64,000 bases of DNA from Rhynchonema sp. JSB1_4 (taxonomy: Eukaryota > Nematoda > Chromadorea > Monhysterida > Xyalidae). Position 1 is the stretch's first letter. Each line of letters opens with the position of its first letter. The stretch spans positions 37,811 to 101,810 of the forward strand of contig JASAMV010002753.1 of NCBI GenBank assembly GCA_030248065.1, written 5' to 3'. This document shows, piece after piece, positions 1 to 57,404 of this stretch. The notes under the pieces are model-generated. The model saw nothing but the letters and a program-made list of their open reading frames with translations, was not told where the DNA came from and ran no database searches. The translations under genes and the position numbers were made by a program.

Positions 1-600
1 AATATTATTGGTGAAACATCAACCAGTCAGCCGACAGGTCGCGCGTTCCTTTTATTTTACTCTCATTCGTAAAAAAGAAAATATACGTAATTTTATGTAT
101 AATGCGGTGCTCGGACAAGTGTAGAACACAGTGAATCGTCAGATAGGTGTATGGTCTTGGTTACGACTTTTTGTGCAGAGGATTTCCCTTGACGACGCTA
201 ATGTCGGCTGGGGCAAAATTTCGCGGCTGGTGCCATAATTGGAGAAAACTTGAAAACATTTGGTCGTATCGGTCGTATCAACTTTGCAGGCATAAATTTG
301 ACATAGACTTTTCAATTTTCCATTGTGAATGCAAAAGCGCGCGGAAAAAGCGTGCACGCTAATCGGCAACACGCTAACGCGCTGCATTGTGAATTTAGAC
401 CGAGTTAGGCCTTAGACACCGAGTTCACAGAGCGCAGATCCGCTAATGCGCTTTTTTGCATTATGAATTTGACCTTAGCATGGATTTGGGCAATTTTTCG
501 TTGAGTTGTACAGCAGAGTTGACCAACATTAGCCGTCAGACTTACATACGTATACTGTATACCTATGTACCTACGTAAGATTCGTATTACACCCGCACAG
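1..600. other. Upstream flank of the GPCR exons, no gene recognised
   Basis: No hydrophobic exon that could encode the missing first transmembrane helix of the downstream receptor is visible on the + strand. The stretch holds one copy of the recurrent 10-mer at 12-21 (reverse strand). A good acceptor (CCCGCACAG) at 594-600 introduces the first recognisable receptor exon. Confidence 0.5.
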
Positions 601-3241
601 AAAAATACAAAACTGATGTTTGTGGATTCCAGCCTTCGTATCTCGCTCAACTACACCATTCTACATCTGGCCTGCAGTGATCTGTGCATGTGCCTCTTGA
701 CAGCTCCGTCCAATTTGTATCTGCAACTTCGGCGTTATTGGCCTTTCGGCGATTTAGCCTGTCGCGGCATTGCATCCGCTCAGGTATGGCTAATCGGTGA
801 AACATCTGCCGCATAGGCTGAGCAGTCTGCTGCTCCGAAGTCGCCTGAAACTTTCCATTGGTTGACGTCGTCCATCAGACTGACTGATGTTTCAATCGAA
901 AGCAAAAGCAGAACGTTACCTGATATCGAACTATAGGTGATCGGTCCAATCCAAACTGGATCAGTTTTTACCGGGGTTTTCCAAATAATGCCTCTGGGGC
1001 CCTATTCGGAAAGAAGTGGAAAATCGGCCTCCTTGATTCAGACATTTTATCCATTGGGGCTCTATTCGAAAAAATTCGTAAAATTCAAGTGTGATCCAGT
1101 CTAGTCCTTTTTTCACAATATAAGCGAGAACATAAACACTGACCCCAGATTGCAGGCCCTCAACACATTTGTCGGGTCCCTGACCCTGGTCGCGATTAGT
1201 GTGTGTCGTCTCGCCCAACTATCATCGCATGGAGTCAGACGACGCCTATTGGCCCTGGTGTTGTTGGGTACCTGGTTCCTGAGCCTAAGTCTGGCGTCGC
1301 CCTATTGGAGCGCCGTCAGGGTTGAAAGCCTGATGCCGAAGACCAACGAGTGAGTTTATCGTTATATCGATTTCTTACATTCACTTTTCGATTGATACAT
1401 GATGAAATACTCTGCAGTTCATTACGTTTGATCGCATTCTGTGATATTCGTGTGCCCTGGCATTGCGTGGAGGATTGGTCACGACATTGGCTAAGTAGAA
1501 GGTTGGTCGATCATGGGGGCGGAATGTAAAACGCTCACAGGGCGTGCACCTTGCAGCAAACATCGTTAGAGATGGTCGCAAAAATTTCGTCGCTGTTTTT
1601 TAACCTTTACGCGTGACGCCCGCGGCCAGATTATGCAGATGACGAAGTTTTACGGTAACGAGTTTTGCTATAGCTCTTGGGAATTCTGCCCATAATATGT
1701 CGCTAATCTTGGATTTTTTTTAGTTTTTCAACCACCCTCTATATAGGACCTACACGCTGTCGGTGTTCGCCATACAGTACTTCACGCCCTTGTCGGCCCT
1801 GTTGTTGACCTACGTGAGCATCGGAGGCAAACTGCGCGCCAGATTGAGGTCAAACAATACGGTGTTGAGTGAGGCGGTGGAGAGGAAAAAACGCAAACTG
1901 CGGTTGGTGGCGGTGTGGTGCACTGCCGGGCGCGAAATAAATATTTTCTAAAAATAGTTTATGATAAATTTTTCGTAGTGGCATGAACCTCTCGGCCACA
2001 GTAATTAAACTCACTTCATAATGCGTGTTAGTCGTAACGGAAATTAATGGTGGTTTTGCACAATGTTGCTAAAAATACGGTAGTTCTCACTGTCACTATA
2101 AAAAGTGTACACTGCATAATCATATACCACCGTTTAATGCTGAGACTGTCGTTGATTAAATCGAACGGTTCAGCGGATGTATTCTTCTCAAAGCTCGGAA
2201 ATATCCCGATGTCACTAGGTGAAAAAGGTGCGGTCTTATGCAATCAGAACAAAAGCAAGACGCGTTTGCCCTTCCAGTTGGTCGTTGTTCCTGCTGATCG
2301 GCTTGGTTGCGTGCTTCGGTTTGTGCTGGCTGCCGCTCAATCTCTATCACGCCCTGCTCGAAATGCAGTGGGTCAACTACAGTCCGGTCATACAAATCGT
2401 GTGTCTCTGGGCCGGTGTGTTTGTGCAATATTGTCAAGGCTAAAGTTTTTTTAACCAGATTTAACCAATCCATTGGTCCGATCGCGAAGTTTGACACCGG
2501 GCATTTAATCGAGTTATCCAATTAGCATGAGAAACACAACCTCAATTGCTTCAGGTCTCCTCCAAACGGCCATCAACCCAATCTTGTACGGGTATTTCAA
2601 TGAAAACTTCAAAAAGGTTTACGTCCAAATTTTATACGAGCTGCTGACTGTATGTGCCCGGCTTCCGTCAACGAAACGTAACAGTCAAAGCGGATTTAAA
2701 TCGAAGGTAGGACGCTTTTGGCTCGAAGTCTCAAAACCGCCAGTGCAAGGTTGCAGCTTTGGGATACTTGGCCTTCTCTTCAACGTTGCTAAAGTTAAAT
2801 AAGCGGTTTCTCAGAGTTTTTCGCTCAAGTTTTCTAAGATCTGTGGTTACAGGCCAAAAATTCGCCATTACCTGCCACACCTCAACCGACGCCGGTGCCG
2901 GTACCAACAAACCATCACGTTGATAGCAATGCATGCATCTGTATTTCTCACAAATCACAGGTTCGTTTGCTAAAAAAACACGTCAGGTGATGTTTCACGA
3001 AGCGTGTACCTGCATAATTTCACCTTTGATCTTACAGCAATCAGCCCGCAGTGAACCACTCCCGGCAGTCGACAATGCCAGTGCAACCGCTGCTCAAAAT
3101 GATCAACAACCAGTGCGCACCGATGCCAAGTTGGCTGATGTTTCACACAGCCAACATTCGTCCACGGCCTGTCAGACGTCAAAGTCACTGGAGGACCAGA
3201 GCAACAGTCAATGTACAAGCAGCTCAAGGTATACTGTATGA
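601..3241 (+). CDS. Rhodopsin-family neuropeptide receptor (NPY/NPF-like), 5' end missing
   Basis: Seven exons join in phase: 601-783, 1156-1349, 1747-1902, 2278-2414, 2555-2706, 2853-2960 and 3038-3241, giving 377 residues and a stop. What is seen: TM2 with LACSDL (the conserved Asp 2.50), a WPFGDLAC stretch leading to TM3, TM4, TM5 after an extracellular loop, a basic third intracellular loop (ERKKRKLR), TM6 with CWLP, and TM7 with NPILYGY followed by NENFKK. The last two exons encode a Ser/Thr/Gln/Pro-rich tail. These motifs fit class A peptide receptors of the neuropeptide Y/F type; the ligand is inference. The protein would sit in the plasma membrane and couple to G proteins. TM1 and the N terminus must lie upstream of the window. 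Oddity: the usual DRY at the end of TM3 reads CRL. The 1902/2278 junction is the least certain. Confidence 0.85.
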
Positions 3242-3274
3242 TTGTCATCAGTGTTGTGCAACATGAAAAGGTTT

Positions 3275-3280
3275 AATAAA
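3275..3280 (+). terminator. Poly(A) signal of the GPCR gene
   Basis: A canonical AATAAA lies 34 bases after the receptor stop codon, in an AT-rich context, and is the likely cleavage and polyadenylation signal. Confidence 0.6.
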
Positions 3281-3537
3281 GAGTCCAACTTAGCCATGCC
3301 ATGACAATGACAGGTTTGCCAGCACTGATTGCAATTCTGAAGCCACTACTGCACTGTGACGTCAACACGCACAAAAACTTCCATGCACATGACGTTTCTG
3401 CCCCGTATGTTCACCGAAAAGGGCAGAGGAACATGAGTTCCTGCCGCGCGCTGCCCGGTTCAGCAAACCAGAGTGACTGTCGCGCCCACTTGGTTTATCT
3501 AGTAAACATTCACGCTAACTAACCATGTGCTAACCTA

Positions 3538-3717
3538 AAGGCAAACTGCGCCAACATGAGCCCGATTACGGAGGGGTGTGTGTACAAAACGAATAGAAAT
3601 GCTCATGCACCATGTTGTAGTCTACAACGTGAAACATTTCCCAAACCAGCAGCCACGTATGAATGTTTCACTAATCTGGCACCTCCGAAATCGGGCTCGT
3701 GTTGGTGTAACAACTAG
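3538..3717. mobile_element. Short TIR MITE, family M1, copy 1 (diverged)
   Basis: Begins GGCAAACTGCGCCAACA and ends with the inverted form CTCGTGTTGGTGTAAC. Inside are the family landmarks GAATAGAAA, CAACGTGAAACATTTCCC and GAATGTTTCAC. Four better preserved copies lie at 6231, 29473, 32315 and 44535. It has no coding capacity. Confidence 0.7.
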
Positions 3718-4243
3718 ACCACTCACACGCTTACCCATGCGGCACACCCAAAAACAAGGTATTTGACCGATCTACGGTACATGTGCACACTGGGCGCATG
3801 CATTCATGTAAGCGGAGCACATGCACATGCATAACACGTGCTGCGTGCACATAGACGGCACATAAATGCCACCAGCAGAAGTACTGTATACCGTACACAA
3901 CTCCCATTCATCAAAACCTTTGTAAAATGACTCCACGGTTGCTCTGCCCGCCGTTATATAAACTTTGAGTTCTCAAGTTGTTTTTACTCCAGTATTTTCG
4001 CTGATGAAAAACGAGCATATTGTTGACTTCTTCGGCCAAGAGTATCAGGTTTGCGCGGATTTCAATCAACCGCGCAGATTAAGCTGAAAAGAAGGGCTCT
4101 TGACATTTTCCTTGAAGGTCACAGGCTAACTGGTGTATTGACAACACACGACGTCAGCTATAAAGTCCGTCGATCCAGAGCTGCCATGGGTAAGAGAAAT
4201 ACATAATACGATACCTACATGGCATTCGGCCTGATTTTACGGC

Positions 4244-4433
<190 letters not shown>

Positions 4434-6418: not shown

Positions 6419-6553
6419 TACATTGTATTCAATAGGCTATCGATCATCAAAATCCAACGATTGCGCGCAGGATGAAAAATTCAAATTCAAATCTCAGTCA
6501 CGAAAATGATTAGGTGCAACAGATATGACACGGTTCAATAATTTGACGCTGAA

Positions 6554-9160
6554 TTACGCATTATACTTTGGAACCGTTCCCAATTGGTTGCCCGATTCAA
6601 CCATGCAATCAGGCAGCCGCGGTTCGCTCGTTGTGGTCTCATTCGTTGCCTTTTTGTGCTTATATTCCAGGTACGGTAGGCAATCACTGATGTTGCACAG
6701 TGGTTCGAGCGTATCGAGTGTTGCGTCATAGCCATGCCATTGCACCTGAACGAAACATCAAAAATGATGACGGGCCTGCGTGATTTGTGATCTGGCGAAT
6801 GGACACACACCCATACGCGTCGAGGCGTACAACCAACGGACCGGTATTATGTGTGTGTGTGCTGCGGTGCACTCTGTATTGAGTGTGCGTGCGTTGGGTT
6901 TACGAGTGATTCTGAGCCGCAGCCAGACCGCGTTCCCGTAGCTCAGTTGGCAGAGCAACTGGCTGTCCAGGCCTGGTGGCTGGGCGGTCGGAGGTTCGAG
7001 TCCTTCCGTGAGCATACGTTTGGTGTGGCGGTTCAGGATCACAGACTGGATGATGTTTCACAGCTGATTCAAATGCAAAAGACGACACACACACGTACCA
7101 AATAGAGCACCTTGTTTTCGTTCTTCTGCTTGGCCAGATTGTGCTGCGCGTTTGGTTTGTCGGTGAGCAGCTGAAATAAGGAAAACGCAACTTTGGATGA
7201 AAATACCACGTGATCTTGTCCACAAGAATTCGTGAAAATAGAAGGACAACGTTATTAGATATTAAACCGATCATCTACCTGTCCCCATTCGTTTCGCCAC
7301 GAGCGCACGGTGGCGTGCCACAGGATCTTGCTCACTTCATACGCGTTGTCCCGTTCCGTTAACCTGTATGATAGGAATTTACTTAATTCTCATTCAACTT
7401 TCATTCAAGTTTACGGTTCAGCTGGAGAAAACTGGGCGAATCAACAAGCAATCAAGTCATCGACAATTTATGAACTGGGCAAAACATTTTCGCGCCGAGT
7501 TTGAGCAAAGATGGCCAACAGGAAATAAAATACGTATAACAACGCATTGTTCCCAGGCGCTGTCAGAAACAGCAAATGTCGCCATACCAGTGGTGTCGTT
7601 GGGCGTCTGCGGGAAATTGGCCGGGGGCATGGGAAATGTTTTACTTTGGGAACAAGCACCCCTAAGGAATCAATTTTTGATCTCGAGAAGCACCACCAAA
7701 ATTGATCATTTTTCGCTTGAAAATGTCAAAAATCGCTTGTATGCGCAAGAAAACTCTGTTTTGACTACCTTTAGACAGATATTTAGCACTTGTAGAATTT
7801 TTGTTGGGGTCAGTTTTTCAGAAACTCCCTCGGGTATGGGAAGTTTTTGCAGTTTGGAGCAACCCCCTGTATAGAAAATTTTTGATTTTTGGGGTGTGTT
7901 GTATGGGAACATTGCCAAATTTGGGCGAGGCATGGGAAATTGTCGATTTCTCAATGACACCACCGCGCAATGTCACAGCAAAGCTTCAGAAAAAAGATAT
8001 TGCTTATGAAAGATTCAGATGCATCAGAAACTAACAATAAAAACAGATAAATACAACGTAGACCAACGTGTTTGCCAACGCGACCACTCTGACCGGCCAC
8101 ACCTCCCTGTACCACTTTGCACTGACCGTATCACCGGGCAACACACGTTCGTGATCAATGGACACAATGTTATTCCATGAAATCACCTGAAATTCAATCA
8201 GCCGATCCATTTTGGTTTTTATGTTGGCATTACATATGTGAGTAGAAGCGTGCTCGATTGAACACAGCGCGAAGCTGCTGCATGTGTGCTTCAACGGTGG
8301 AAGTGCAACTTATGGAACTTAACCACGGTAGCACTTCACGAATCTGCAAAAACGATCTCTAGTCAAGGTGCAAGTGATGAAAATGGAAGTGGCGTTTTAC
8401 GGAGTTAAATTGAAACCTCGTTATGGTCATAACCTCGATTTACTCATGCCTTGTGGCGGGTCCCGTTCCGTATGCATAACGTGTTATCACGACTCGTTAT
8501 AGTCATGAATTCGATACAGTCATGGCCCCCTTGACATGACTCTCACGAGGTTTCACTGTATATGAACTTTTCATTTCGTTTCGTTCAAGAAGGACAATGT
8601 ATTGCTTCAAGTTTTCAGAAAGCCTTTATATCCACGCCTGGAAACATTTTCTCACGCCAGAACGTTACGCACCCATAAAATTTTTAACCGCCGTTAGGCC
8701 GCTCTCTGACAAAAGCAAAAAGTTTACCACACACTTTTCGCTTTTTGCTTTCGTCAGAGAGCAAAAGCAAAAACTTGAAAAAAAGCAAAAAGTCATCATG
8801 ACTTTTTACGCCCAAAACCGGGCTGCACAAACCCGAAAATCAAAAATTACACAGGTCTGGAACACGCTAATGTTTGCTGCTTGTGCGCGCTGCACAACTT
8901 TTTGCTTTTTTGCTCTCTGACAAAAGCAAAAAGTCAACTTTTTGCTTTTGCTCTCTGACAAAAGCAAAAAGCAAAGCGTGTTGTGAACTTTTTGCTTTTG
9001 TCAGAGAGCGGCCTTACATTGATGAAATTCTAAACAGGACATTTTGCATGCAAATTGCAAAAAGCAGAGCAGAGCTGACACTCACACATTAACCAACCTG
9101 CGGTCGCCATTCGCGTAGCGGACGAAACGTGGCCTTGTCAAGCCATTGGATAAGCGGCAT
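6554..9160 (-). CDS. Chromodomain protein (partly resolved exon set)
   Basis: Six exons on the reverse strand: about 9160-9098, 8343-8234, 8186-8068, 7363-7279, 7170-7099 and 6745-6554. The last four join in phase. Exons four to six carry YEVSKIL, a roughly 35-residue insert, then KVLYLVQWHGYDATLDTLEP, which matches the chromodomain pattern YxVekIL...YLVKWKGYdxxxxTWEP, here with Leu in place of the usual Trp before EP. The third exon reads DTVSAKWYREVWPVRVVAL, reminiscent of a Tudor-like barrel. Such domains bind methylated histone tails in the nucleus; the partner is unknown. The ATG at 9160 is in frame but unproven, and the 8234/8186 junction does not close in phase as drawn, so an exon edge there is wrong. 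A hAT MITE, a Harbinger-like MITE and a tRNA-like sequence sit in its introns. Confidence 0.65.
6932..7014 (+). tRNA. tRNA gene or tRNA-derived sequence
   Basis: A clear A box (TAGCTCAGTTGG) and B box (GGTTCGAGTCC) lie at normal relative positions. A D-arm (GCTC/GAGC), a five-pair T-arm and an acceptor stem with one mismatch can be drawn. The stretch between D- and T-arms is 32 nt instead of about 22, so it has either a long variable arm, a short intron, or is a degenerate tRNA-derived copy. I could not assign an anticodon. It lies antisense in an intron of the chromodomain gene. Confidence 0.55.
7588..7965. mobile_element. hAT-type MITE, family A, old copy
   Basis: Starts CAGTGGTGTCGTTGGG and ends CAATGACACCACCG, a decayed inverted terminus. 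The interior shows the family landmarks of other A copies (GGGGCATGGGAAA-like blocks, AAAATCGCTTG...CGCAAGAAAACTCTG). The 8-bp flanks match at only about five positions, so the insertion is old. Located in an intron of the chromodomain gene. Confidence 0.75.
8697..9013. mobile_element. PIF/Harbinger-like MITE flanked by TTA
   Basis: Ends GGCCGCTCTCTGACAAAAGC and its inverted complement, flanked on both sides by TTA (8694-8696 and 9014-9016). The interior repeats GCAAAAAG / CTTTTTGC blocks. A 3-bp TWA duplication and GGC-type termini fit PIF/Harbinger elements; no transposase is present. It lies in an intron of the chromodomain gene. Confidence 0.75.
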
Positions 9161-9665: not shown

Positions 9666-12600
9666 TCAGTCGATATCTTTAGCGCCCAAATGTTGAGGAT
9701 CCATGCTCGGGTAGTGGATAGCATGACGCGGGGGCGGGGCATCCGGAGGTAACAAGGCTGCTGGCACTGAAAAATACTTACTTTAGCGATATTCGTGAGT
9801 AAACTTCAAAACCTTTTAAAGCCCTGCCTGTGGAACGTGACTTACCCACTTTGGGCGGCGGCGGCATAGCTCCTGGTCCGGGCCCGGTAGCCGGTCGTTT
9901 CCTTGCACCAACCGGGGGAGGAACAACCTCGGTCTCGACCGGTACCGGTCCAGATGGTGGCGGCTGTTGTTGTTTTGATGTTGACGCTTCGTTCAGATTG
10001 AAAAAGTCGTTCGCCGTGGGCAGAGCTGCACAAATAAATTTGGGCGCGCGACATTATTTTTTGCTCAAATATTGAAATGTTTCGTAACAGTCATATAACA
10101 ACACTCCAAAGTAATATAGTCGATAGATAGTGTGTGATAATCCTCAATCCGAACATGAACCATTAACCAACCAGATGGCAAGCCAGGTACGGGCGCGTAT
10201 TGTTTCTCTTCATCTTTCGCCTGTTGAGATTGAGGCCGACCCCAGCGCACAGTAAGACGGCGGCCTGAAGAAATAACAACTTGCGGTTGTTATTACCGAT
10301 TTTGTTGCTTATTTCAGGGCTGTCATAATTTTGGGAACGCTTCATTAAACCGGCCCCGCCGCTATTGGTTTTTGGGATTTCGACCACGTTTTTTGTTCAT
10401 ATCGGTAGTTGGCGTCGAGATCAAGAACATTAATTTTGACGAACTTCACCAAAATGGCGATTACCCACCGAAATCGATCCGCAAACATGGCCTATCGGGA
10501 ACAAAACTGTCCGATATTGACGCACATCTGCACATGATAACCAGGAATCTATACTACTAAAACAGGAAGGCGTATGTAAGTATGTCGGGGGGGCGGGGGT
10601 GGCACGGCACGGGCGCAGCGCTGTAGCCGGGCCGTAGGCACGGGTCCCGTCTAGTTACAACAGAAATTCAAAATCACTGGGGCGTGATGTAGGCAGCGGG
10701 TCACGATAGCCCGATAAAACATTAGATGCTTTGCAAAAGATAAATGTTTTGTGAAGCTACTGTAACCCGGCGCCTATACCACCGTCAGTGATTTTGAATG
10801 TTGTTTTGCAAATGCTGATTTCCATGCAGATTGTCTGACAATATTGGGCAGGGTTCGGGTGGGGTCGAAAACCCCGAAAAAAACCCGAAAAAACGCCGAA
10901 AAAAAACCCCGAAAAATAAAACCCCGAAAACGAAAAACCCCGAAAAAAAACCCCGAAAACGAAAAACCCCGAAAAATATAAAATGTGTGGAAAACAATTC
11001 TTTTGGTTAGAGAAGGGTATTCATGTCGTTCGTGCACCAAAAAATGGGCACTGGTACAGTTCGGGCACAAGTTAGGTAATTCTCCTTTGTTCATGTCTTC
11101 CTAGCTGGCAGCCTAAGCCTAGCCTAACCCTAAGTGAAGGCCTATTCCGTTAAACTTTTGTGGATGTTGCTTTCATGTGGCCAGGTCTTCCTGGCTGGCA
11201 GCCTAAGCCTAAGCCTGACCCTGAAGGAAAGTCTGAGCAGTTAGGTTTTTGTGGAAGTTTTCTTCAAATGGACAGGTCTTCCTGGCTGGCAGCCTAAGCC
11301 TAACCCTGAAAGAAAGCCTGTGCAGCTGTACATTTGTGGATGTTTCCTTCATATGGACATGTCTTCCTGGCTGGTAGCCTAAGCCTAAGCCTGTGAACAA
11401 GCCTAAGCCCAAGTCTAGGTTCAAGTCTGATCCGAAGCCAATTTATCAAGTGTAGGGGTGATGTTTCACTCGTGGGTCACGAGCGACATGAATACTCACC
11501 TCTAACAAGATTTTTTTCATCCCTGACATTTTTTATTTTCCGGGCTTTTCCGTTTCGGGGTTTTTTTCGTGGTTTTCGACGGCCACCCAGGATTCTTCCC
11601 GAACGCCCATGTCGGTGGATGGATTTCGATTAGTAATCATCATTTTGGTGGTTTTTCAAGGTTAATGTGCTTGATCCCGATGATGATTCGTGGGCCAGTG
11701 TGGAACCCCATGGTAGGGATTTTTACACAGGTGCTTGATCCCAGTGCCAACTAACGTTGCAAACAGAAAAAACGAGACCGAAAACCCAAAAAACAATAGC
11801 GGCGGGCCCGGTTTAAATTTGGCTGACGTTTTGTCAACATTATTAGGATCTTTCACACTTTCAAAACGAGGCTTTCAACTAGAGTGACCCCTCGCAACCG
11901 TGATGAGATCAGGACCTACCCTTGATCACCAATCGATTGAACGATTTGGCAGCTGCCATTTCAGCAGCCGACCGAGTCGTGAATTGCACAAACGCACAGC
12001 CTTTCAGACCAACCACATTCACCGATCGAATCTCTCCGAATTGATAGAAATAGTTTCTGGAAACATTTATTTGAAAAAGTAAACTTTCGAAAAACACAGA
12101 CAATAATTCTATTATCTGAAGGACAAAAAATCCCACCTCAGATCTTCCTCCGTTATCATGCCCTCCTGTCCCAAACTGCCAATGTAGAGTGTCGTGATGC
12201 TTTTCTCGTTGGGCGGTTGCAACTGGGGCATGGCCTATAAAAACAAAGGGTTGCAAATCAAAGTGAAAAGCGATGCAAGCATCATGAATTGCAAGCAACT
12301 TGTCAAAAAATGAACTTGACATAGGCAACATACCTTGGCACGATTCAGCATCTTATCTGCCACAGGATCATTCACTCCATAATATCGATCGCGCATGTTC
12401 TGATCCGACAATGGGTCATCTGGGTCAGTCGGTTTCTCGTGCCTGAATATCGAGAAAAAATCGATGTAAGACAGCTTGTATCTTCAAAATACATTTGTTT
12501 TGTCACATTCATATTACAAATATTGTCGACGTTTATTGTCGATACAAAAAACCTCATAAATTTCAAACTTCAGAACGTGCAATCAATTATTTTCTTCAAA

Positions 12601-22126: not shown

Positions 22127-29909
<7,783 letters not shown>

Positions 29910-44375: not shown

Positions 44376-46792
44376 ATGTTGGTACTGATTGCTATTCTAA
44401 CAATTTCCTCAGTCGGCCATGCGCTACTTCGACCGTGGATCCGTCGTTCAGGATCCGATCACCAATATCAGGTAATAGGCATTCAGTTTTAACGATGTAA
44501 ATAAAGTGAAACGAATAAATTAAATAAAAAGTATAAGGCAAACTACGCAAACACGAGCCCGATTTCGGAGGTGGTGAGCTTGCAAAACGCAAAGAAAGAG
44601 AAAATCATCATGCTCCACGTTGTATTCCACAACGTGTAACGTTTCCCAAATCAGCAGCCACGTCATGAATGTTTCACCATTTTGCCAGCTCCGAAATCGG
44701 GCTCGTGTTGGCGTAGTTTTACTTTAAATGATGCAGATTAACGATGACATGAATTTCGCACTGCGTGCCAGGGAAAGGTGCCGAGCACAGGGCGCTGACT
44801 TGATTGTCATCAATGACAAAGACGAACTGGTTAATACATATTTAGTTTAACATTTTTTGGATTACTGTATTTTGTTTGGATTGCGGTAGACCATTCGTGA
44901 CATTCAACATGGCTTGCTTACAGGAATGGTTACGCGCACAGTTCCCAGTCGAAGGACTGATCCCGCATGGTGACCGTTATATAACGATTGGACTGTATCG
45001 CAACACCGGCAATAACTGGTTGTGGACCGATGGCAGAGAGTTCTCGGATGCTTTCATGTTGGTTTGGGATGGCTGATGAAATTTAGATAATTGACCAAAA
45101 AACTTTTACGCCAAGATCCAACTTGGTGATCGGTACTGGCCGAATCGATCCTGTTTGGGGGATGTGACTTTAATCTGCTTCGAGATTCATCGATACCACT
45201 GATTTTGACCAGCGTAATGGTTGTTCATCATACAACGGACCAAGTTTGACACGGACCCCTAATCACAATAAAACTTTTGTCCGTCAAACTTCAGCCGAAT
45301 GAAAACCGGCCCTGATGTGCACAAGCATTGTGCGCAATACAAGGTGATCGCACGTGAGATCGAACCGATCGCATGTGAGATACCGTATCCCATTGAGACA
45401 CAGGCGCGATACGTGTGCGAACGAACGGCCGGTGCGTTCAAACGTCATTCTATGTAATTTAACCATGTCGTCAGATGGAGGACCGAAATAAAAATGCGTT
45501 CACAAAAACGCTTCCAATAAAGAAGGTGTGGGTCTGCCTTTTCAGAAGAGTCCCGTTCGGTAGTGTCCGCCGTTGGGTCCAACCTTCCCCACGACCTTAT
45601 TATGCAGCTGCATTCAATCGCGAAACAAAACGAAGAGAAAACCAGTGAGAGAATTGGACTGGTAAATGTCGAGTCGGCTGCTGTTTCAACAACAACGTCG
45701 ACACCTCAACCAAGTTGGTATTAAGATCATGTATTTGAATGGTACCAGACGGGACCCGTGCCGACAGCCCGGCTACAGCGCCGCGCCCGTGCCGTGCCCC
45801 CCCCCCCGAAGACCCGTTAGCATACCCAAAGCTACCCGTGAAAATTGACCCGTCCGCCCTTCCGAGGGAGGGGGCCACATACATACATACATACGTCTTC
45901 CTGTTTTAGTAGAATAGATTTGAAGGTATTTCAGGTGTATTTTAAGACCGCCCAGGATTTGCCCAAACAAGCTTGCTTCGAAATTCTGAAAGCACTAAGG
46001 ATGAGTCAGTGAATAGATTTTATTTCAGCACCGACTGCTAGCATCATACCAGCTGATGTTTCGACTCCAGATCTACTATCCGGCCTCATACCTGATCTCG
46101 GAGAGAACGGTTTGTGTATCATTTGAGTGTTCGTCGTTGATTGCAAATTTCAAGGTTGTCGTGCGCTGGTGGCCATCAAATTCTTGGTTGTCTGATGCAC
46201 CTTTTCCAAAGCTTTTGTTGGCTTGGGCACCAGCACCAGCTACGCAGGCCTGTACAAACAAAGCAAGAAATCCAAAACAGGCTTCATTTTAAACTTTTAA
46301 ATCCTTAGACATCTGATGGGATCTGGTGCTGCAAGCCAAACCCCCTGTGTAACATATTAGCCGGTTTGTTGTGTGGTAACGTTCAGTTTTATTTCAGCCC
46401 CAATGATTGATGAACCGACTGATCTTCTCGGATCTTTGGTGCCAACATTTGGCGATCCAAGCAAGTCTCACGTTTAAAATATTGCGTTACATTTGTCATT
46501 AATTATTAAATAGTTCCCGATAACAACAAGCGAATTGTGTTTTTGCAGTCCATCGTGGCGCTTCAAATCTGCCGCAATCGTTGAACACAAATCGATGGGT
46601 GCATGCATCTCTTGGTAGCAGTGAAGGTTCGTGAATGGCGGTATCTAGGATACGTTTATTTTTAAATCTTGTTTTCAAGTCATTCCCCTATTTACAGATG
46701 GCGGTGCAAGAAGCAGCAGTCGGTCAGCCATTCCAAGCACTGAACAGTGGCTGACAGCACTTGACCTACGAAATCGATTTGGAGGAAAATAA
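44376..46792 (+). CDS. Secreted C-type lectin-domain protein with Thr/Pro/Ser tail
   Basis: Nine exons in phase: 44376-44471, 44737-44829, 44924-45057, 45295-45431, 45546-45713, 46029-46109, 46398-46460, 46549-46626 and 46698-46792, giving 314 residues. A signal peptide (LVLIAILTISSVGHA) precedes the C-type lectin domain: RERCRAQGADLIVINDKDEL, then WLRAQF, YITIGLYR, NNWLWTDG, and a final HCAQYK...CEIPYP...ARYVCE. Canonical EPN/WND calcium-binding motifs are not evident, so sugar binding is doubtful. After the domain comes a Ser/Thr/Pro-rich tail (STTTSTPQPTPT). No membrane anchor is visible, so it is probably secreted. The intron after exon 7 uses a GC donor (A|GCAAGT). A tandem paralogue follows at 46988. 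A Helitron lies in intron 5. Confidence 0.88.
44535..44721. mobile_element. Short TIR MITE, family M1, copy 5
   Basis: AAGGCAAACTACGCAAACAC at the left and GGCGTAGTTTTAC at the right, with CCCGATTTCGGAGG / CTCCGAAATCGGG subterminal inverted repeats; in intron 1 of the lectin gene. Confidence 0.85.
45745..45918 (-). mobile_element. Short Helitron-like element, copy 2
   Basis: On the reverse strand it starts TCTATTCTACTAAAACAGGA and ends with the ACGGGTCCCGT hairpin followed by CTGG, inserted between A and T. It shares both ends with the copy at 10548. In an intron of the first lectin gene. Confidence 0.7.
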
Positions 46793-46987: not shown

Positions 46988-48259
46988 ATGTCCTATTGCG
47001 TTTTTTGTTTGACATGGTGTCTTGCATTCCACTCAACATTAATCAACTGTCTGTCCACTTTCCGACCGTGGTTGCGCTCACCTCACAACGATCGCGCTCA
47101 GTATCAGGTGAGGTTCGCAAAAATCTATTATTCGCTGCATAATTGATTCACAGTCATCTCACCACTATGGTGTTCTGGCCGTGGGAACCACCCGAACGAA
47201 TTTCAGTTCAATGACAACAAACAAACGTGGATGGGTGCACGTGAGGTGTGTTTGGGTCAGAATGCTGACCTGATGGTCATCGATGGAGGCACATCTGAAT
47301 TGGTAATGTTGCAATAGATGATGTTTCATGATTTGGTGATTAGGTTATTTTCTAAACCACTGCCCTTTTCCTGTTTAACGTGACTTCTTTGTATCCATAA
47401 CATCAAGTCAATCACAGTCAGTTCTTTCGACTCTTAGTCAATCACAGTCAGTTCTTTCGACTCTTAGTTCCGTGCTTGGCCAGTACACACTCAAATCAGC
47501 TTGCCAAAAATTGAAGTTTCTGTCTTTAGGATTGGTTGCTCTGGCACTACCCATTAGCGAACTACACCCACGGTCTGCTGTTACCGCATATGGAACGCAA
47601 GATCTTCCTCGGATTGATTCGGTCGTCATTAACAGAGTACAAATGGGTGGATGGAAGTGCGTACAATGGATCCTTGATGTTAGTCAATGATTTGGTGATG
47701 TTTCACAGTTCGCATAGCATCATTGTTTGTTCAGGGTTTCAATGTCTGGGTCTGACTCACCCTCGCAATGAGACATCACGTTTGCGCCACTTGCTGATGT
47801 TTCATCGAGTGTATATGAAAATGGCAGTTGTCGAATTGATGTTTCAGTCCCCTACTGATCGAGAGTCACACGCCTCCGTCCCACCAGTGTGCGTATTTCG
47901 AAGTCCTGACCAACACCGTCCGGCCGTGGGGCTGCGAACTGCACTTGATACCCATTCACGCACGATTTGTGTGCAAAAGGACATTGGGTGTGTTGGCTAC
48001 CAGGTGTTTGTTATCAAGAAAGAATTTGCCATCCAGACCATAAAGATGTGTGCCCATTCATTAGCCGGAATTATCCGGGAGAATCAGCCACTGAGAAGAA
48101 TGTGCAGGCATACAGCACAAATGTCATTTTTCATTGATAAACCACAAAACCGAGATTTCGCTTCTGCCCTTTTCAGCTCAGGCAGCCAACGTGGTGCACA
48201 GTTCCGCGGCTTCTTTGCCAAAGCAGGCAATTGATATGCTCACAAAATTGGAATTGTGA
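46988..48259 (+). CDS. Secreted C-type lectin-domain protein, tandem paralogue
   Basis: Five exons in phase: 46988-47107, 47207-47302, 47530-47678, 47848-47987 and 48177-48259, giving 195 residues. The first exon has a hydrophobic start and ends LRSPHNDRAQYQ, matching the exon-1 end of the upstream lectin (IRRSGSDHQYQ). The domain reads TWMGAREVCLGQNADLMVID, IFLGLIRSSLTEYKWVDGS, HQCAYFE, WGCELHLIPIHARFVCK. Intron positions and phases equal those of the upstream gene, so the pair arose by tandem duplication. It lacks the long Thr/Pro tail and ends in a short hydrophilic segment. The acceptor of exon 4 is a copy of the recurrent 10-mer (TTGATGTTTCAG). Confidence 0.87.
47319..47846 (+). promoter_or_regulatory. 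Cluster of four TGATGTTTCA motifs
   Basis: Exact copies at 47319-47328, 47696-47705, 47795-47804 and 47837-47846, all forward, inside the introns of the second lectin gene. The last one ends in a splice acceptor. The role is unknown; the core TGTTTCA is shared with the C. elegans 21U-RNA upstream motif. Confidence 0.5.
47406..47465. repeat. 30-bp unit, two perfect tandem copies
   Basis: AGTCAATCACAGTCAG...CTCTT is repeated twice without change in an intron of the second lectin gene. Confidence 0.95.
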
Positions 48260-49271: not shown

Positions 49272-51611
49272 CTTGGAAGCTTGTCATCAAAGCAAAGCAG
49301 CTGTTGTTTCGAAGGCGCACCACATTTTGTGACTTGCGTCATTATAATGACATTTTCCATTTCTTCTAATCAGCCCAAGCCACTAACAAAATATATCTGC
49401 GATGATCTACAGTATGACCAGTGAAAGCTCACAGAGTTGAGCTCGTCTGGCCCAGTAGTTGTCTGTCTTGGTTCTATCCGAACTAACCGTGCAAATGTTT
49501 CGTACGCGGTGGTTCCTTTTGCATGAAAATTGAGTTGGGCCTGCACTCAGGCAGCGTATAATCAAATGTTGGATAACGTAATTTCGAGCACACGGAAGAC
49601 GCATGATACAAAAAGACGACACGTCCTGTTTTTACGTAACGAAGCGCGTCGCTGGCAGGTAATATAGTAGCCCCTGGGCATTTCTTGGATGCAAAGTGTT
49701 TCGAATACATACATAGTTGATCTGCCTTTGTGTTTCGATGCCCGGTTTGGGTGTGCGTGGGCCTCGCGTTTCTTTTGAGTGTAGTCGGATTATTATATGG
49801 ACTGCTCAATTGTACAATATAGTTGACGAATAGATGTATAAAGGGTGTATATATTGTCCTGACTTTGTTCATGAAGCATGTCGTGAGGCGAAACTATAAA
49901 TGAATGACTATTAGTATAATGCATCAACAGTACTGCGCCTGGTGGATCAACTTTTGCCCTTACTCTTTCGATGCACAGGTATGACGAAAAGGATAACCTA
50001 ACCTTCGGCTGCATCAAATTTGATCCTTCTTTCCCGTAGCGTCGTGTAATCACCATAATAAACAGCAGAAACACCACCATGTAAATACTATCTTTATCCG
50101 ACATTATCTAACACCTATAGTTATTGCCTTGGCGCTCGTGCTCGCCAGGGGGTTGGTACTTTCTCTGGTGTTAGATTATTTTTTTATTATACTCCAACGT
50201 CCAACGATTGCTTTCAGGAAACATTATTTCAGCAAAAAGCAGTTACGCAAAACCGCTGATTACAAAAAAATGTTGCACAATACTATCTATATACAGTATG
50301 CATGGCATGCCGCTAAAGCTTGAGCGTGATACACTCCAGTACGTATAGGTGTCCATAGATAGGAGCTCAACGCTGGATAAGCTTGAAAGAAATGTTATTC
50401 AGTCGTGCCATTAGTCGTTTTCCAACGTCACGACCTATGCACGTGTCCTGAAACCCAGATGGAGCTTCCTGCTATGTACGTACGTTATGGACAAAACTAT
50501 GTCGTGATCGTGATAAGGTCCCATGCTTTTTGCAGTATGCGCCTTTGCTGTGAGTTTGCCGTAAACGTGTTGTGCTGTGCTGAATAGAACGTATATTTAA
50601 TCATGTGGAAGTTTCTTGGTCCACATGGACATTTTAATGACAGATGGGGATAAACTAGCATCACTAACAGGAGAGCAGCAAACCCAATAATTTTCGTCCG
50701 AAGCAGCATCGAAGCCAAATTATAGCCGCTTCAGCACATTTTCTTAACTAGGCACAGCGACGTCATCATCGGCGAACGAGGGAGCCGAAAACAAAACATG
50801 ACGGGGACGGCACACGGCACCATATATGCCAGATTACGATCTCTGGAAAGGATTTCTGATGAACATAAACTGTTTGTGCCACGCTAAGCTGATGTTTCAT
50901 AGCTCACGTAGTTCACTCATAGTTCACAGCTGCGTGCCCATCTACTGTATAATCTATAATTATAGCTTCTTACATGCGTTTTCTTGATAATAAACATGCG
51001 AATATGAATACCAGAAACCTTTAATCTCTTTCGCCGTGAGTTTTCTGAGCCGCGAAGGGTGGCTAAAATACACATTCGCACACGTACATGATTAGCATCA
51101 CGTTTTTTCATCATATCCTCGATCCGTTGGTCCTTTATTTCCACATCAACATTGTCACCTTGGAACTTTCATTTCATAGCAGATCTTTGAGTTACGCGGT
51201 TACGGTAAGTATTGCATGCCTGTTTGAGAGGACCTGCAAGGACACAAATGCGCATTACCATAGCTTTGTGATTCATTTCCAAAGCAACTCTCTTTATAAA
51301 CTTTCACCTGCCTTGTAAACAAAAGCTTTTCAGCAAAAGAATGGATCACTCACCCTTGATTATTTTGCAAGATCACAGGCTCGAACCACGGAACAGTACA
51401 GCGCAACTCATGCCTAACCCGTTATTTTTTAATTTCCAGGTAACCTTTTTACACATTTCGTTCTCCGGTGTGGTGATTGAAATTTTGTAACAATGGCTTG
51501 TTGAGATTATGTGCGATTGGCAAGAATTCCACCCACTCCATGCCACCCACGCACGCGTTCACAAGAGATACAGAAGTTATTCGACGTGCTTTAGTTCTGA
51601 AGTGTTTAATT

Positions 51612-51740
51612 TGATACAGGCTGTAGCCTAAACCTAGGCCTAACCGCGAGCCTAAGCCTAATCGTAACTTCGGGCTTAAGATTAACCGCTAGCCTATGCG
51701 TATACCTATGTAACTGAGAGCCTAAGGTTAAGCCTGCCAG
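51612..51740. repeat. Interspersed GCCTAA-like repeats
   Basis: Irregular AGCCTAAACC, GCCTAAGCCTAA and AGCCTATGCG units resembling degenerate TTAGGC telomere repeats, similar to those in the 11.1-kb minisatellite. Confidence 0.6.
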
Positions 51741-51898
51741 GCATAAAAGAAAGTATAGCATTGAGAGCTGATGGCAAATGTTCAACTCATGATGGTCATG
51801 ACGTTAAGAAATTGTTTCACAGAATTCTGGGTGGAAAATAAATAATTTCTCGAAAAGAAAACGCTGATAATTAAACAAAAAATGGGTCAAGAGATCAG

Positions 51899-54704
51899 CA
51901 GTCGACGTTACCAATTGTGTGGCAGTCCAGCAATTGATCGCAGGAGACGTCAGATTGGAGTCAACATCGACAGGAAAGTCAGGGAATTCAGCAAACGATG
52001 GGGCACTGGTTGGTGAGGGTGGTTTCTGTTTGAGTATGTACCCACATAACCTGGTCGGTCTTTCTCTATCCGATATTCTCCCCACCAGTGGACTCAAATT
52101 AGGCGCAAAATGAAGGCTAACCTTTTCGTCACCTTGGGTTCCCAGAACACAAATGCGCGTCGAGAATGCCTGACTTACAAACGCGCAGATGCGCAAAAAA
52201 CGCGAATGCATTGTGAAGACAGCCAGCAGGGCAGACGGTGAAACTGTACCAACCGATAATCAAGGTGATAGCATACAATACACCATATCAACATTGAGGC
52301 AATATAGTAGTAGGCAATAGGCAATCAACATCGACTACGGTGGCCGCGGCAGGGCCCAGGGCACGACACCAAAACAGTGCCTTGCTTTGAATATTACCTT
52401 GCCTTACACAGTGTAGTCGTTGTGCCTTCAAGTCTAATATTAGCTAAGTGAACTCAAATGTCATCATACAAACGGAGCAGCCCAGAATGGTACAGGTCTT
52501 GACCACATGCCCAACAGCACCCCCAAGGCCAACCATAGACAACGCCGACAGCAGTTACGCAGAGAATCGTCATCGATCGACCCGCCAAGTCGACAAGTCA
52601 GTCAAACAGACATGACCACCACCGGTGCTGGACAGACGCAACCAGCTGCCAAATGGAATTGTAAGGCAAAAAAGTTTATATGTATACTTTGATTTCATAC
52701 ATGGCTAATAGGTTGACAAAATGCGATTTCTTTCTACTCATCAGGTCAACATCGAACCTATGGATTGGACCATGATCAGATCTTTCTATTCACTTAAAAA
52801 TTGATTGTTGCGTTTGGCATAGTTCTGACGGGGATGGTTCTAATTTCGATCATCTGAAGAGTTTTCTGTTAACGGCCGGGAAACGATGCTTTCGCAATCA
52901 AAAACAGAACCGCCTGTGAATGTCGAAATCTCCGTTAAAAAACTGGAAAATAGCATGGGGTAGACAGATGTTTACCCTCGCAAAAGGAAAGCCAATAGCT
53001 CGTTGATGTTTCACAAACAATATGATCACAATAACAACCCGTCGATGTTTCAGCAATCGATCGTCACCATTCGCTATCGCCGCGTCGTGCGCGATTCCTA
53101 TTGCCCACTGCGCATGCGAACAGCATCGACGTTGATGTGCCACCATCAAGCAGTCCGATCCAGTCACCGCGCCAGCCATCTGCATTGTGCACCACTATTA
53201 CGGTAAGCTGGCAGATTCGTTGACAATACTCCTGCGGAGCACGTTCTGCAGGCTCAACTCTCGTGCGTTTAGCTATTGTAGCGGACGGTCACAGGCTGCG
53301 TGTTCCGTTCGGATCAGGCGATCAGGCAAAATCGGGCATCAATTTTGAAAATAATCTGCCAACCATATTTGCAAAACATGCAATTATCTGCCGAATATTT
53401 ATAGTGGACATGCACAGTTCCTGGGGGCAATTCTAGGCTGACAGTTGAAGTCGTGTGCACGCGCGTGCGAAACAGTGCAAAGTATAGGTAAAAGTCAAAG
53501 TATAACTTCGCGTGCGTTGCATATGTTTTAATACTATGAAGTCGCGCGCACGCGCGTGCACGCGACTTCAACTGTCAGCCGAGAATTGCACCCGGAACTG
53601 TACATACTTTTGTTCCGTTATTGATGTCCGGGCATGTAATGTATGGTGCTTATTGAGGACCGTCACTACGAAAGGGACAGTTTAAATGCTAGTATATGTA
53701 TACCACAACACAATTTGTGACGCATCCAAACAGGTGCTTGATTCGAACGGTGCCTTGATGACAGTCAACCCGGGAGGCGATCGTCGCGGCCCCAACAGTC
53801 TGCTGCCACAACCGTACTTCCGTTCGAGTCCCGGTTTGGCAGCGCAGCGAGAGGCCGGATACTGCTGTGAAACATCACCGAGACTCATCAAACAACGCTC
53901 ATTGTCCCCAACCCCGTTTGACCAGGATGGACAACCGATCATGTACGGGACACCGCAGAAACGATCATCGTACATTCAAATGAGCCACGGGTCATGTAAG
54001 TGGGAGGGTTATTCGACCTTGATTGACAGGACGCGGCAATACAGCTTATACATTGCATTGGGTGTGCTTGTGGCACGCATAAGCGTAGTGCGATCGATAC
54101 ACAGTGGGTTTGGGCCCTCAATTGGAGCCCACAAAGCTTATACATACATTATGTGCACGGAGGGGTTTTGTTACTACCGGGCCCGGTCTGTACTTGGCGT
54201 TCGAAAGTTTCGCTAATTCTATTGTACTCGAGCTAACACATCTGACCACTTGTGTTTTGTGCAATACAAAGCAAACCACGTAAGGCGCGACGAAAAGATT
54301 ATGAAGATCGAGTTTCAGCTTTGAGTTCACAACCGCAGCTTTATCTTAGATAAATAATGTCCAAAACTTGATCACCCACGATTACAGTATCACCTGCATC
54401 ACATCAAGTTTCGTCGGCCAGTTCGTTCGATCATCCGGACTCCAATTCGCCGCCAATAACTATCAACCCCTACAGTCCCCATGCCAGTCCCTATTCGCCC
54501 AGGGCCCTCTGGCCAGGTCGTTATGTGCCCCCATCAGGGGGAGACTACACACCAACGTCCTACACACCCCCAACAACGAGAAGGCAGCCCTACAAGAACT
54601 TGGGGGTGGCCGGGGGTACGGCCAGGGATCGAAGGGCGATGTTCGGGGCTCAAAGACACGTCACCGTGGATGTACACACAAATGGTGCCGTTAGATACGA
54701 ATAG
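51899..54704 (+). CDS. Pro/Ser/Tyr-rich protein, 5' end unresolved
   Basis: Five exons in phase: 51899-52012, 52496-52660, 53054-53202, 53734-53995 and 54388-54704, giving 334 residues before the stop. I do not recognise the family. Composition is low-complexity: basic and Ser-rich (RQRRQQLRRESSSIDPPSRQ), Ser/Pro clusters (PPSSSPIQSPRQPS), and a C-terminal part with NPYSPHASPYSPR and YVPPSGGDYTPTSYTPPTTR, ending VHTNGAVRYE. Such segments are typical of long cytoplasmic or adaptor tails with phosphorylation and WW/SH3-binding sites (inference). The ATG in exon 2 is internal; similarity in phase shows earlier exons exist. The acceptor of the third exon is a one-mismatch copy of the 10-mer. Confidence 0.65.
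53412..53603. mobile_element. Inverted-repeat MITE in an intron
   Basis: CACAGTTCCTGGGGGCAATT...GGCTGACAGTTGAAGTC at the left and the inverted form at the right, with CACGCGCGTGC palindromes inside. About 190 bp; target duplication not certain. Confidence 0.75.
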
Positions 54705-55260
54705 GATGTTTTAGGGTATTGAGCTGTTTTTAGGTTTTGGTCAGACATGTTCAAATTCGGATTCAAAAATACAAACGCTCACATCACGAAACGACGTGTC
54801 CTCGGCTATAATGTTGCTCATATGTATGTATTGAACTGGCATCGAACAACTGTGATATTTGTATATTTATCATATTGATTAATATTGCACAATTGCTGAA
54901 GATTTGTGTACGATCCATCAATTAGTCGTTCGAACTGTATAATTTCGCACGGTGTCTGACATCATCAACTAATTTCTCTCATCGCTAGTTATTTTATTTG
55001 GGGCGCAGGTCAAAGCTGTATCTTCAGTTGGATTTTCAGCGGCATATTGCAAAAAATTATACCGAGAATAACCTTGATTGATATTTGAAAGAAATCACTG
55101 AACGGTCGATGCATAGTTGAGAATGGTCATAATTCTGAGTTAACTGGAACAATGGAGAATAAGGCTCACTCAGCTGAAGTTGTAATCGGGGCTTCACAGA
55201 GAAAAGAAACTATAATATACAGTATTTGTGCTGTGTTGTTTTTTATTTTAGTTTGCACCT
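54705..55260. other. Convergent 3' spacer
   Basis: AT-rich sequence between two converging gene ends; nothing recognised. Confidence 0.5.
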
Positions 55261-57404
55261 TTAAGTTTTGGTCGTCAGCGTCTGGTCGGTAGTCTTCTTG
55301 GTCGGTTCATTTTGGTACTGAAAGCATAATAGGGCCCAGTGTTGATTCTTAAATTGGAGACAAAAACATTCGGCTATTATTAACAGACCTCACTCCCATT
55401 TCCGTTTTTATATCTGCATCATTACGCTGGTCTTTCTTCTTTTCGCCGATTACCAGGAAACCGACGCACGCGAGCACAGCTGCGCAGAGGACGAAACCTT
55501 GAAAGGCAATCATGTTTCAACTGCATTGTAATGTCGACGTCAACCAAGCACGGCTTTCAGTTTTGTGAGGTCCACTTTTCCCAAACCAACAGGCTGATGT
55601 TTCGCAGACGGTATAGCTACATATGTAGCTGTAGACACTTGCAGCAACTCACCGAAAGCGGCAACACCGATCACGACATAAATTGTCGGCCACCCTGCGC
55701 CGGCTCTGACGTGTGTCACATCTGAATAATTGGCAACAACTGCACTCAATGGTGGTGTACCCAAAAAAATGGTAAATGCAAAAAATACCAACATTTTCCC
55801 AAATAGCACCGTTTTGCCTTCGTCCATTTCAGCTCTACGCCAGCTTTGTCGCATGTAATGTTTTGCTCTCGTTGATACTGGCCGTCGAGGACTTCATCCT
55901 TGTTGTTTTTTAACACGTAACCTTCATGACAGACCACGGCTAGAGTGGATGCCGGTTTGTACTTCTTGGTCGGGCTCAATGTAGTTTTGTAGACGGCGTT
56001 GGCGGGCAGTTCTTCGGGCCGCGGTGGGGACGGGCAATCTGGAGATTCGCCAAAAATGTCCAGATATATATTGCTAGTATGATTCTCTTGACAGCGTCAC
56101 ATTTACTGACTTAAACTCGTAGTCTGGATGTGCAGCGAGTTACGAGATGAGGTGTAGTCCAGAGTATAGGTAGGGTATACAGTATGTGCAAACTCACGAT
56201 TCAGTTCTCTTTCACAGAGAAAACTTTTCTTTCGCGTGCATGCCAGGTCGGCCAGACCGTAGGGGTTTCCTGCTGATGGATCATCATGGTACTGGCAGCG
56301 GAAGTCGCCGCATGATTGATGTCCACCGAGACCCCATTCTTGGAACAAGTTGTTCGGCTGCAATGCGTTTGGCCTCATTAGATACTGTAGGTATACGTAA
56401 ATTATCCTTACTGTTTTGCTTTTAAAAAAGGTGCGCCCCCTCCTTGGGCCGCGTCCCCCTTCAAATTTTCAGTCTCAAGTGAGAATATTTGTTTTTTTTT
56501 CATTCATTCCCAATTAATTTATTCATCCCCGCTTTGCTTTCCAACGATGTTCAAAATAATCTGTTCGAATTCAAGTGCAGGTTAAATCTTAAATTAAGCG
56601 GCGGATTCCGACTGCCAAGTCGATTGCATGCACCTGTCTTTCGCTCCACACACCCACATCAACCGTTTTGTAGTCGGCCACCCATTTGTACCACGTCCTC
56701 ACGATGTCTCTGTCGTTTACATCCAGCTCGTGGTGCTCCAAGTTTGGAATGTGCGCCCCGGTCCAGTACGATTTCGACTGCTCGCCGTCACATTTCAGGC
56801 CCTAGCGAAGGCGCATCATCACATTTTATAGTGTTCATCATCATGACATGCTGCATACGTTGCTACCGGAAAACTTTACACAATAAAATATACAAGATGG
56901 GCTATCTTTAGCTATATATGCGTCTAACGCTTCGCGGGCCACAAATCGCTCCAGAAAAATCGTCTACTGTAAGTCCTGATTGATATTTTGCGGCTCCGAT
57001 AACTACCGTAACCGAGAAACCCATTGCATTGCCGTGCACAACTGTCTTACCATTTTTATTTGAATGATGTGCTTGATTTTCTGTTTTGGTCGGTCTTCGA
57101 TTCTGATCGACGCAAGAGTGCCTTGTTTGAAAACTGCCGTTTTTTCCAAGGCCTCACAATCGGCTTTTGCTTTCAACCAGGTGTAGCCGTAAGCTTCATT
57201 CGCAGCTTCTTTGCCGACGTAACACTTGCCGTTGTTTGGTTCTGAATCTTCATTGTAGTAGGATCTCATGCCGTACTGCAAGCCCGCGGCACACTCTTGG
57301 TTGAAATCGATCTGATCTGAAGATGCGCTCATCGGAGACACAATCAGGAGCAGCAGAATTGTTGGCAGGAACCGGGGACAGGGTCCGGTTGGGGAAGTTG
57401 TCAT
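55261..57404 (-). CDS. Membrane-anchored C-type lectin plus sushi-domain protein
   Basis: Seven exons in phase: 57404-57051, 56801-56634, 56357-56198, 56038-55793, 55721-55653, 55497-55394 and 55317-55261, giving 385 residues. Order of parts: signal peptide (LPTILLLLIVSPMSA), a C-type lectin domain (KCYVGKEAANEAYGYTWLKA, SYWTGAH, WYKWVADYKTVD, CGDFRC, SFLCERE), one sushi/CCP module with four cysteines (HCPSP, VVCHEGYV, NITCDK, RCYLG), a transmembrane helix made by exons 5 and 6 (TIYVVIGVAAFGFVLCAAVL), then a short Lys/Thr-rich cytoplasmic tail. A type I surface receptor for recognition or adhesion is inferred; the ligand is unknown. A shorter paralogue lies immediately upstream on the same strand. 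Confidence 0.9.

What the first reader, a model, noticed from the sequence alone, without database searches (positions are those of the whole stretch)
1..55604. A strongly over-represented 10-mer, TGATGTTTCA, in two blocks, resembling a piRNA promoter motif
Seen: exact copies, both strands, at 12, 885, 2988, 3136, 7051, 11459, 36677, 41811, 42923, 47319, 47696, 47795, 47837, 50890, 53004 and 53868. One-mismatch copies lie at 798, 6751, 46054, 53043 and 55595. About 0.1 exact copies are expected by chance. Copies lie in and around the GPCR, chromodomain, secreted-protein and lectin genes; one is in an RBM22 intron. None was seen from 11.5 to 36.6 kb, the bulk of the housekeeping block, or after 55.6 kb. 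Known: C. elegans 21U-RNA loci have an upstream CTGTTTCA motif. Inference: these may be motif-driven piRNA loci or sites of a related SNAPc-type promoter. I checked the spacing to a YRNT start by eye for six copies and found it at +38 in only one, so this is unproven.
Basis: partly seen in the sequence, partly recalled or inferred. Interest (0 to 1): 0.85.

Follow-up and report, generated by a model that had tools for sequence, protein, structure and literature searches.

The report
Dispersed snRNA-type promoter motif in nematode
A ten-letter DNA word repeated tens of thousands of times in a roundworm genome closely matches the switch that turns on its splicing-RNA genes, and may mark a huge set of tiny RNA genes that guard the genome, although that last step is unproven.

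Summary
All 16 exact TGATGTTTCA copies are where stated, about 0.1 expected. The genome (203.9 Mb) holds 37,556 copies against 345 for the reversed word; in a sample, 107 of 112 stand in unrelated flanks.

The word is a form of this genome's proximal sequence element (PSE, the SNAPc site of snRNA genes). It or a near match lies at -44/-45 of 8 of 10 U1 hits (2 exact), at -47/-48 of 8 U2 hits scored of 9, and at -56 of 4 U6 hits of 7 examined. The commonest U1-type word (2,024 vs 1,728) and the U2-type word (810 vs 1,950) are not amplified.

PIWI-clade Argonaute fragments and SNAPC3 are present. One gene tree places the worm outside Rhabditida.

So the SNAPc-type-promoter reading is supported; the piRNA reading is plausible but unproven. 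The YRNT start expected at a fixed distance was not found in 169 copies; one used by 10% at a single offset should have shown. Small-RNA sequencing would decide.

The parts
12..21 (-). exact PSE-like 10-mer
885..894 (+). exact PSE-like 10-mer
2988..2997 (+). exact PSE-like 10-mer
3136..3145 (+). exact PSE-like 10-mer
6751..6760 (-). variant TGATGTTTCG, a form that is 10.9 times its control genome-wide
7051..7060 (+). exact PSE-like 10-mer, starts 37 bp past the end of a tRNA gene
11459..11468 (+). exact PSE-like 10-mer in an RBM22 intron, opposite strand to the gene
36677..36686 (-). exact PSE-like 10-mer
41811..41820 (-). exact PSE-like 10-mer
42923..42932 (-). exact PSE-like 10-mer
46054..46063 (+). 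variant TGATGTTTCG
47319..47328 (+). exact PSE-like 10-mer
47696..47705 (+). exact PSE-like 10-mer
47795..47804 (+). exact PSE-like 10-mer
47837..47846 (+). exact PSE-like 10-mer
50890..50899 (+). exact PSE-like 10-mer
53004..53013 (+). exact PSE-like 10-mer
53868..53877 (-). exact PSE-like 10-mer
55595..55604 (+). variant TGATGTTTCG

Best explanation
TGATGTTTCA is the core of one particular form of this nematode's PSE, the site bound by the snRNA-activating complex SNAPc. Shown: the same or a closely similar element stands at the PSE position of U1, U2 and U6 genes, and this form (with TGATGTTTCG to a lesser degree), not the commonest U1 form or the U2 form, is amplified to about 37,000 dispersed sites on both strands. 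Inferred: each site recruits a SNAPc-type complex and RNA polymerase II to make one short RNA, in the way that Ruby-motif and Plectus piRNA promoters work, and the RNAs feed the PIWI proteins that this genome encodes. I put the PSE identity at about 0.95, active short-RNA promoters at about 0.65, and PIWI-bound piRNAs at about 0.55.
For: Genome-wide 37,556 copies vs 345 for the reversed word. U1: exact word at -45 in 2 of 10 hits, TTATGTTTCA at -44/-45 in 5 of 10, a 7/10 match at -45 in 1 of 10 (a hit below cut-off). U2: 7-9 of 10 letters at -47/-48 in all 8 hits scored, of 9. U6: 8 of 10 letters at -56 with a TATA-like GATAAAAGG in 4 of the 7 hits whose upstream I fetched, of 9. Of 20,000 random window 10-mers scored on these promoters, only the motif itself (drawn three times) reached the score; of 5,000 letter shuffles one did. 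Flank preferences learned from 106 dispersed copies put 6 of 17 snRNA sites scored within the top 2% of background. Amplification depends on the form: TTATGTTTCA 2,024/1,728, TGATGTGACA 810/1,950, TGCTGTTTCA 1,713/616, TGATGTTTCG 3,222/296. PIWI-clade fragments on three contigs, with PIWI proteins the best solved-structure matches. SNAPC3 domain on two contigs. In print, Plectus piRNA and snRNA motifs are almost identical and the Ruby motif is proposed to derive from the SNAPc site (PMC6436959, passages and sections 10 and 30).
Against: No YRNT start at any fixed offset from 15 to 85: best 21 of 169 at +39, z 2.5, where an injected 10% would give 4.6. The first +39 signal was 14 of 71, then 1 of 36. 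No GC step downstream. The 5' half is weak, whereas the Plectus piRNA motif is bipartite with both parts almost always together. 2 of 10 U1 hits have no such element. 3 of 7 U6 hits examined lack it at -56, though two of these have 8/10 matches at other distances (-50 and -14 in one, -64 in the other). In the flank test the U1 gene L094, which has the exact word, scores below background (88% of background is as high or higher) and the three U6 sites are not raised. No RNA or protein-binding data. PRDE-1 and TOFU factors were not looked for; the U6-type word was not counted genome-wide.
Confidence: 0.6

Rival explanations
1. The dispersed sites bind SNAPc but do not make piRNAs: they drive another class of short capped RNA, or act as structural or decoy sites.
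For: The match to the snRNA PSE is strong while the YRNT start is absent. Neighbours share a strand in 43 of 89 pairs and clustering is mild.
Against: PIWI-clade sequence is present and the nearest published parallels, Ruby and Plectus sites, make piRNAs. No precedent is known to me for tens of thousands of inert SNAPc sites.
Confidence: 0.22
2. The word is the site of an unrelated DNA-binding protein (a forkhead factor, or a zinc-finger protein of the chromosome-pairing type) and resembles the PSE by chance.
For: Forkhead factors have been reported to recognise the Ruby motif, though the paper's own screen found none (PMC6317315 passages). A strict word in unrelated flanks is what such a site would look like.
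Against: The match at the PSE position of three snRNA families is reached by no other of 20,000 window 10-mers, with flank agreement at many U1 and U2 sites. TTATGTTTCA keeps TGTTTCA yet is only 1.2 times its control.
Confidence: 0.1
3. The copies are debris of a repeat family spread by transposition.
For: Some copies lie in recognisable duplicates: within L025, within L027, L053/L054/L070, L024/L109 and L071/L023. 5 of 112 copies were dropped as more than 60% identical to another.
Against: 107 of 112 copies have unrelated flanks; beyond about -8 and +10 no clear base preference is seen.
Confidence: 0.05

Closest known systems
Nematode PSE / SNAPc-binding motif of snRNA genes
   Same: The same or a near-identical element at a set distance upstream of U1, U2 and U6 genes of this genome; SNAPC3 present.
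   Different: Tens of thousands of copies, far more than snRNA genes found (28 hits), in a form that is amplified while the commonest U1 form and the U2 form are not.
Plectus sambesii / P. murrayi piRNA promoters (Beltran et al. 2019, PMC6436959; passages and sections 10 and 30 seen)
   Same: Piwi present outside clade V; piRNA motif and snRNA motif almost identical; P. sambesii loci not clustered.
   Different: Plectus has a strong bipartite motif, and 3,082 sites in P. murrayi; here the 5' half is weak, copies number 37,556, and no initiator is visible. SL1 (one mismatch allowed) has no match in this genome.
C. elegans Ruby motif (CTGTTTCA) and type I 21U-RNA loci
   Same: GTTTCA core (ATGTTTCA matches CTGTTTCA at 7 of 8), thousands of sites, PIWI in the genome.
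   Different: No YRNT start at fixed distance; dispersed over the contigs seen (one search list); the C. elegans-like form TGCTGTTTCA is only 2.8 times its control.

Membership tests
snRNA-gene PSE (SNAPc site) | Stands at a set distance upstream of snRNA genes | tested here: met
   U1 8 of 10 hits; U2 8 of 8 scored, of 9; U6 4 of 7 examined, of 9. This concerns the word and near matches to it, not the window copies
snRNA-gene PSE (SNAPc site) | SNAPc genes in the genome | tested here: met
   SNAPC3 domain, 3 matches on 2 contigs; SNAPC1 and SNAPC4 not tested
snRNA-gene PSE (SNAPc site) | An snRNA gene follows the site (window copies) | tested here: not met
   At gathering scores the window has one Rfam hit, a tRNA that ends before the copy at 7051
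snRNA-gene PSE (SNAPc site) | SNAPc binds the site | not testable with these tools
   needs chromatin immunoprecipitation
Ruby-motif piRNA (21U-RNA) locus | Core with GTTTC(A) | tested here: met
   sequence
Ruby-motif piRNA (21U-RNA) locus | PIWI/PRG-1-type Argonaute in the genome | tested here: met
   PIWI-clade fragments on C1663, C3368 and C4595; best solved-structure matches of two C1663 exon pieces are PIWI proteins
Ruby-motif piRNA (21U-RNA) locus | YRNT start at a fixed distance (21U about 42 nt from the motif in print) | tested here: not met
   169 copies, best offset z 2.5; 10% of starts at one offset would give 4.6, but 10% spread over 7 nt (3.0 against 2.3 seen) would hardly show
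Ruby-motif piRNA (21U-RNA) locus | 21-nt 5'-U RNAs from the sites | not testable with these tools
   no reads available
Ruby-motif piRNA (21U-RNA) locus | PRDE-1, TOFU-4, TOFU-5 | not tested
   -
[quoted passage not shown]
   weak preferences upstream in 106 copies (p 2.9e-9 at -2, 5.2e-6 at -1, 2.6e-5 at -4; 0.004 to 0.06 at the other places from -8 to -3)

The most novel reading that the evidence does not exclude
A nematode lineage outside Rhabditida keeps PIWI and runs about 37,000 one-promoter-per-RNA piRNA genes from a dedicated PSE form that differs from the main U1 and U2 forms by one or two letters, without the YRNT initiator. That would put PSE-driven piRNAs outside Rhabditida in a lineage beside the plectids and show how the two promoter codes were separated.
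Probability: 0.45. Interest if true: 0.82.

Novelty: new variant of a known kind. Interest (0 to 1): 0.62.

Why it matters
In print, Piwi and its upstream motif are reported for clade V and plectids and as absent or largely absent from the other nematode clades (PMC6436959, PMC4323106, PMC6468775; passages seen). A nematode outside Rhabditida with PIWI-clade Argonautes and a PSE-like word in about 37,000 copies would test the proposal that nematode piRNA promoters were borrowed from snRNA promoters. The sharp difference between amplified and non-amplified PSE forms gives a concrete handle on how a cell could tell the two gene classes apart. My paper searches listed no such report, but I saw titles and starts of abstracts only, two lists were cut (20 of 48, 20 of 37), and the library holds open-licence papers only.

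Tried and rejected
Fixed initiator: YRNT at +39 looked good in the first copies (14 of 73; 14 of 71 after dropping duplicates), failed in 36 new copies (1 vs 2.5) and stayed at z 2.5 in 169. Dropped as evidence.

Orientation runs that I saw by eye in the window: over 89 neighbouring pairs 43 share a strand, so nothing there. Clustering: variance/mean 2.42 in 20 bins of 20 kb (0 of 500 random placements reach it), 1.46 in 10-kb bins (6 of 500), 1.26 in 5-kb bins (13 of 500), 1.13 in 2-kb bins (30 of 500). This used only the window and 19 contigs that had at least one copy; contigs C1, C8, C20 and C23 (no listed copy, length unknown) and C24 (list cut) were left out.

Selection on the motif from duplicated loci: 13 alignment rows, but many pieces had been fetched because they hold the motif, so the test is biased and is not used. 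GC step downstream: none. SL1 with up to one mismatch: 0. Species naming by SSU rRNA or COX1 failed because the server was busy. A Pfam scan of whole frames was not accepted because of stop codons.
Full report
What was checked. The enrichment is not local. The genome that holds the window (203.9 Mb, 5,747 contigs) has 18,829 forward and 18,727 reverse copies, against 172 and 173 for the word read backwards. That is one copy per 5.4 kb and 109 times the control.

What the copies look like. From the window and pieces of 20 contigs I collected 112 distinct copies with enough flank; 5 were dropped because they are more than 60% identical to one kept, which leaves 107. These pieces were chosen because they hold copies. 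One search, with a slightly different flank, kept 106. Outside the 10 letters there is only a weak preference upstream (G at -2, p 2.9e-9; C or G at -1, p 5.2e-6; T at -4, p 2.6e-5) and C at +10 (p 3.6e-7). No longer repeat unit is seen, though some copies lie in duplicated stretches. Strand order shows no pattern, and copies cluster mildly at 20 kb.

What it is. I searched the same genome for snRNA genes: U2 9 hits, U1 10, U6 9. Upstream of U1, 2 of 10 have the exact word at -45, 5 of 10 TTATGTTTCA at -44/-45, 1 of 10 (below cut-off) a 7/10 match at -45, and 2 of 10 nothing there. Upstream of U2, all 8 hits scored have a 7-9/10 match at -47/-48; the ninth hit, below cut-off, was not scored. 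For U6 I fetched 7 of 9: four have TGATGCTACA at -56 followed by a TATA-like GATAAAAGG. Three do not; two of these have 8/10 matches at other distances. These three were left out of the score test. The fit of the word to these promoters is reached by no other 10-mer among 20,000 drawn from the window. I then scored the flanks of 17 snRNA sites with the preferences learned from dispersed copies: 6 of 17 lie within the top 2% of background (L089, L095 and L032 at 0.3%), 6 more between 3.7% and 12%, and 5 are not raised, among them the three U6 sites and both U1 genes that carry the exact word (L094 at 88%, L097 at 24%). That the PSE is the SNAPc site is established knowledge; that SNAPc binds here is inference. 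A SNAPC3 domain is encoded on two contigs.

Form specificity. The commonest U1-type PSE word TTATGTTTCA occurs 2,024 times against 1,728 for its control and the U2-type word TGATGTGACA 810 against 1,950, so neither is amplified. TGATGTTTCG is 10.9 times its control (3,222/296), and the C. elegans-like TGCTGTTTCA 2.8 times (1,713/616). The U6-type word was not counted. The dispersed set therefore follows a stricter code than snRNA promoters do, although two U1 genes carry the exact amplified word.

PIWI. The Piwi domain family has 54 matches in the genome. From the pieces I fetched, those on C1663, C3368 and C4595 are of the PIWI clade by their motifs. Two exon pieces from C1663 match PIWI proteins best among solved structures: 59.2 bits for 'Protein piwi' (6kr6), against 27.9 for HrAgo1 and 23.9 for Argonaute-2; and 37.8 for Siwi, against 23.6 for Argonaute-1. 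Others look like AGO and nematode-type WAGO proteins by eye and from recall; neither supports nor excludes the WAGO label.

Which animal. Of the 120 best listed relatives of the window's RBM22 (2,012 found), the nearest is an unnamed metagenome protein (73%) and the nearest named ones are nematodes (Gnathostoma 71%, Romanomermis 70%, Acanthocheilonema 70%, Trichinella 69%). In a tree of 35 rows (the window's protein and 34 that I picked) it falls outside a clade of the Rhabditida sampled plus one metagenome protein (support 99/94), and Romanomermis, Trichinella and Trichuris form a clade without it (96/87). One gene is thin evidence: the fork that holds it is weak (82/47) and pairs it with a long-branched row. 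SL1 was not found. I could not name the species.

Does it make piRNAs? In C. elegans, type I piRNAs have the Ruby motif and a YRNT whose T is the first base (PMC6317315 passages), and the motif-to-21U distance peaks at 42 nt in the species studied by Beltran et al. (PMC6436959 section 30). I tested all offsets from 15 to 85 on 169 copies: 107 ending in A, and 62 ending in G (of 68; 6 dropped as duplicates). The best is 21 at +39 against a mean of 12.4 (z 2.5). A start injected at one offset into 10% of copies gives a median top z of 4.6; spread over 7 nt, 20% gives 4.8 and 10% gives 3.0, where 2.3 was seen. A C. elegans-type initiator is thus absent or rare. This counts against the piRNA reading but does not exclude it, because the Pol II start may be set by the PSE alone.

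Verdict. The word is a PSE form in about 37,000 copies: strongly supported. That the copies are promoters of short RNAs and that these are piRNAs is inference from the Plectus and Ruby systems and from the presence of PIWI. By the initiator test the sites are not to be filed as Ruby-type 21U loci; they may work like them.

Noticed in passing
window 6932-7014 (+): A tRNA gene (38.8 bits, Rfam) ends shortly before the motif copy that starts at 7051.
   Followed up: no
L094, L095, L097 (U1 promoters and gene starts on C137, C4510, C3984): U1 variants with changed 5' ends (AAACTAACCTGG twice, AAACTTACTTGG once, against AAACTTACCTGG in 6 of 10 hits); two of the three carry the exact TGATGTTTCA at -45.
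   Followed up: no
window, several places: Other over-represented words: ACCTACTGTACC (17 copies), ATCTATCGTCA (11), CGGCCCGGCCCG (23) and TAATAATAATAA (58).
   Followed up: no
G000 contigs C1090 and C2701: The same part of the SNAPC3 domain on two contigs: two genes or two haplotypes. A germline-type SNAPc paralogue would be of interest.
   Followed up: no
L078, L080, L083: Argonaute fragments that resemble nematode WAGO proteins from recall; solved structures do not decide it for the one tried, L080.
   Followed up: partly
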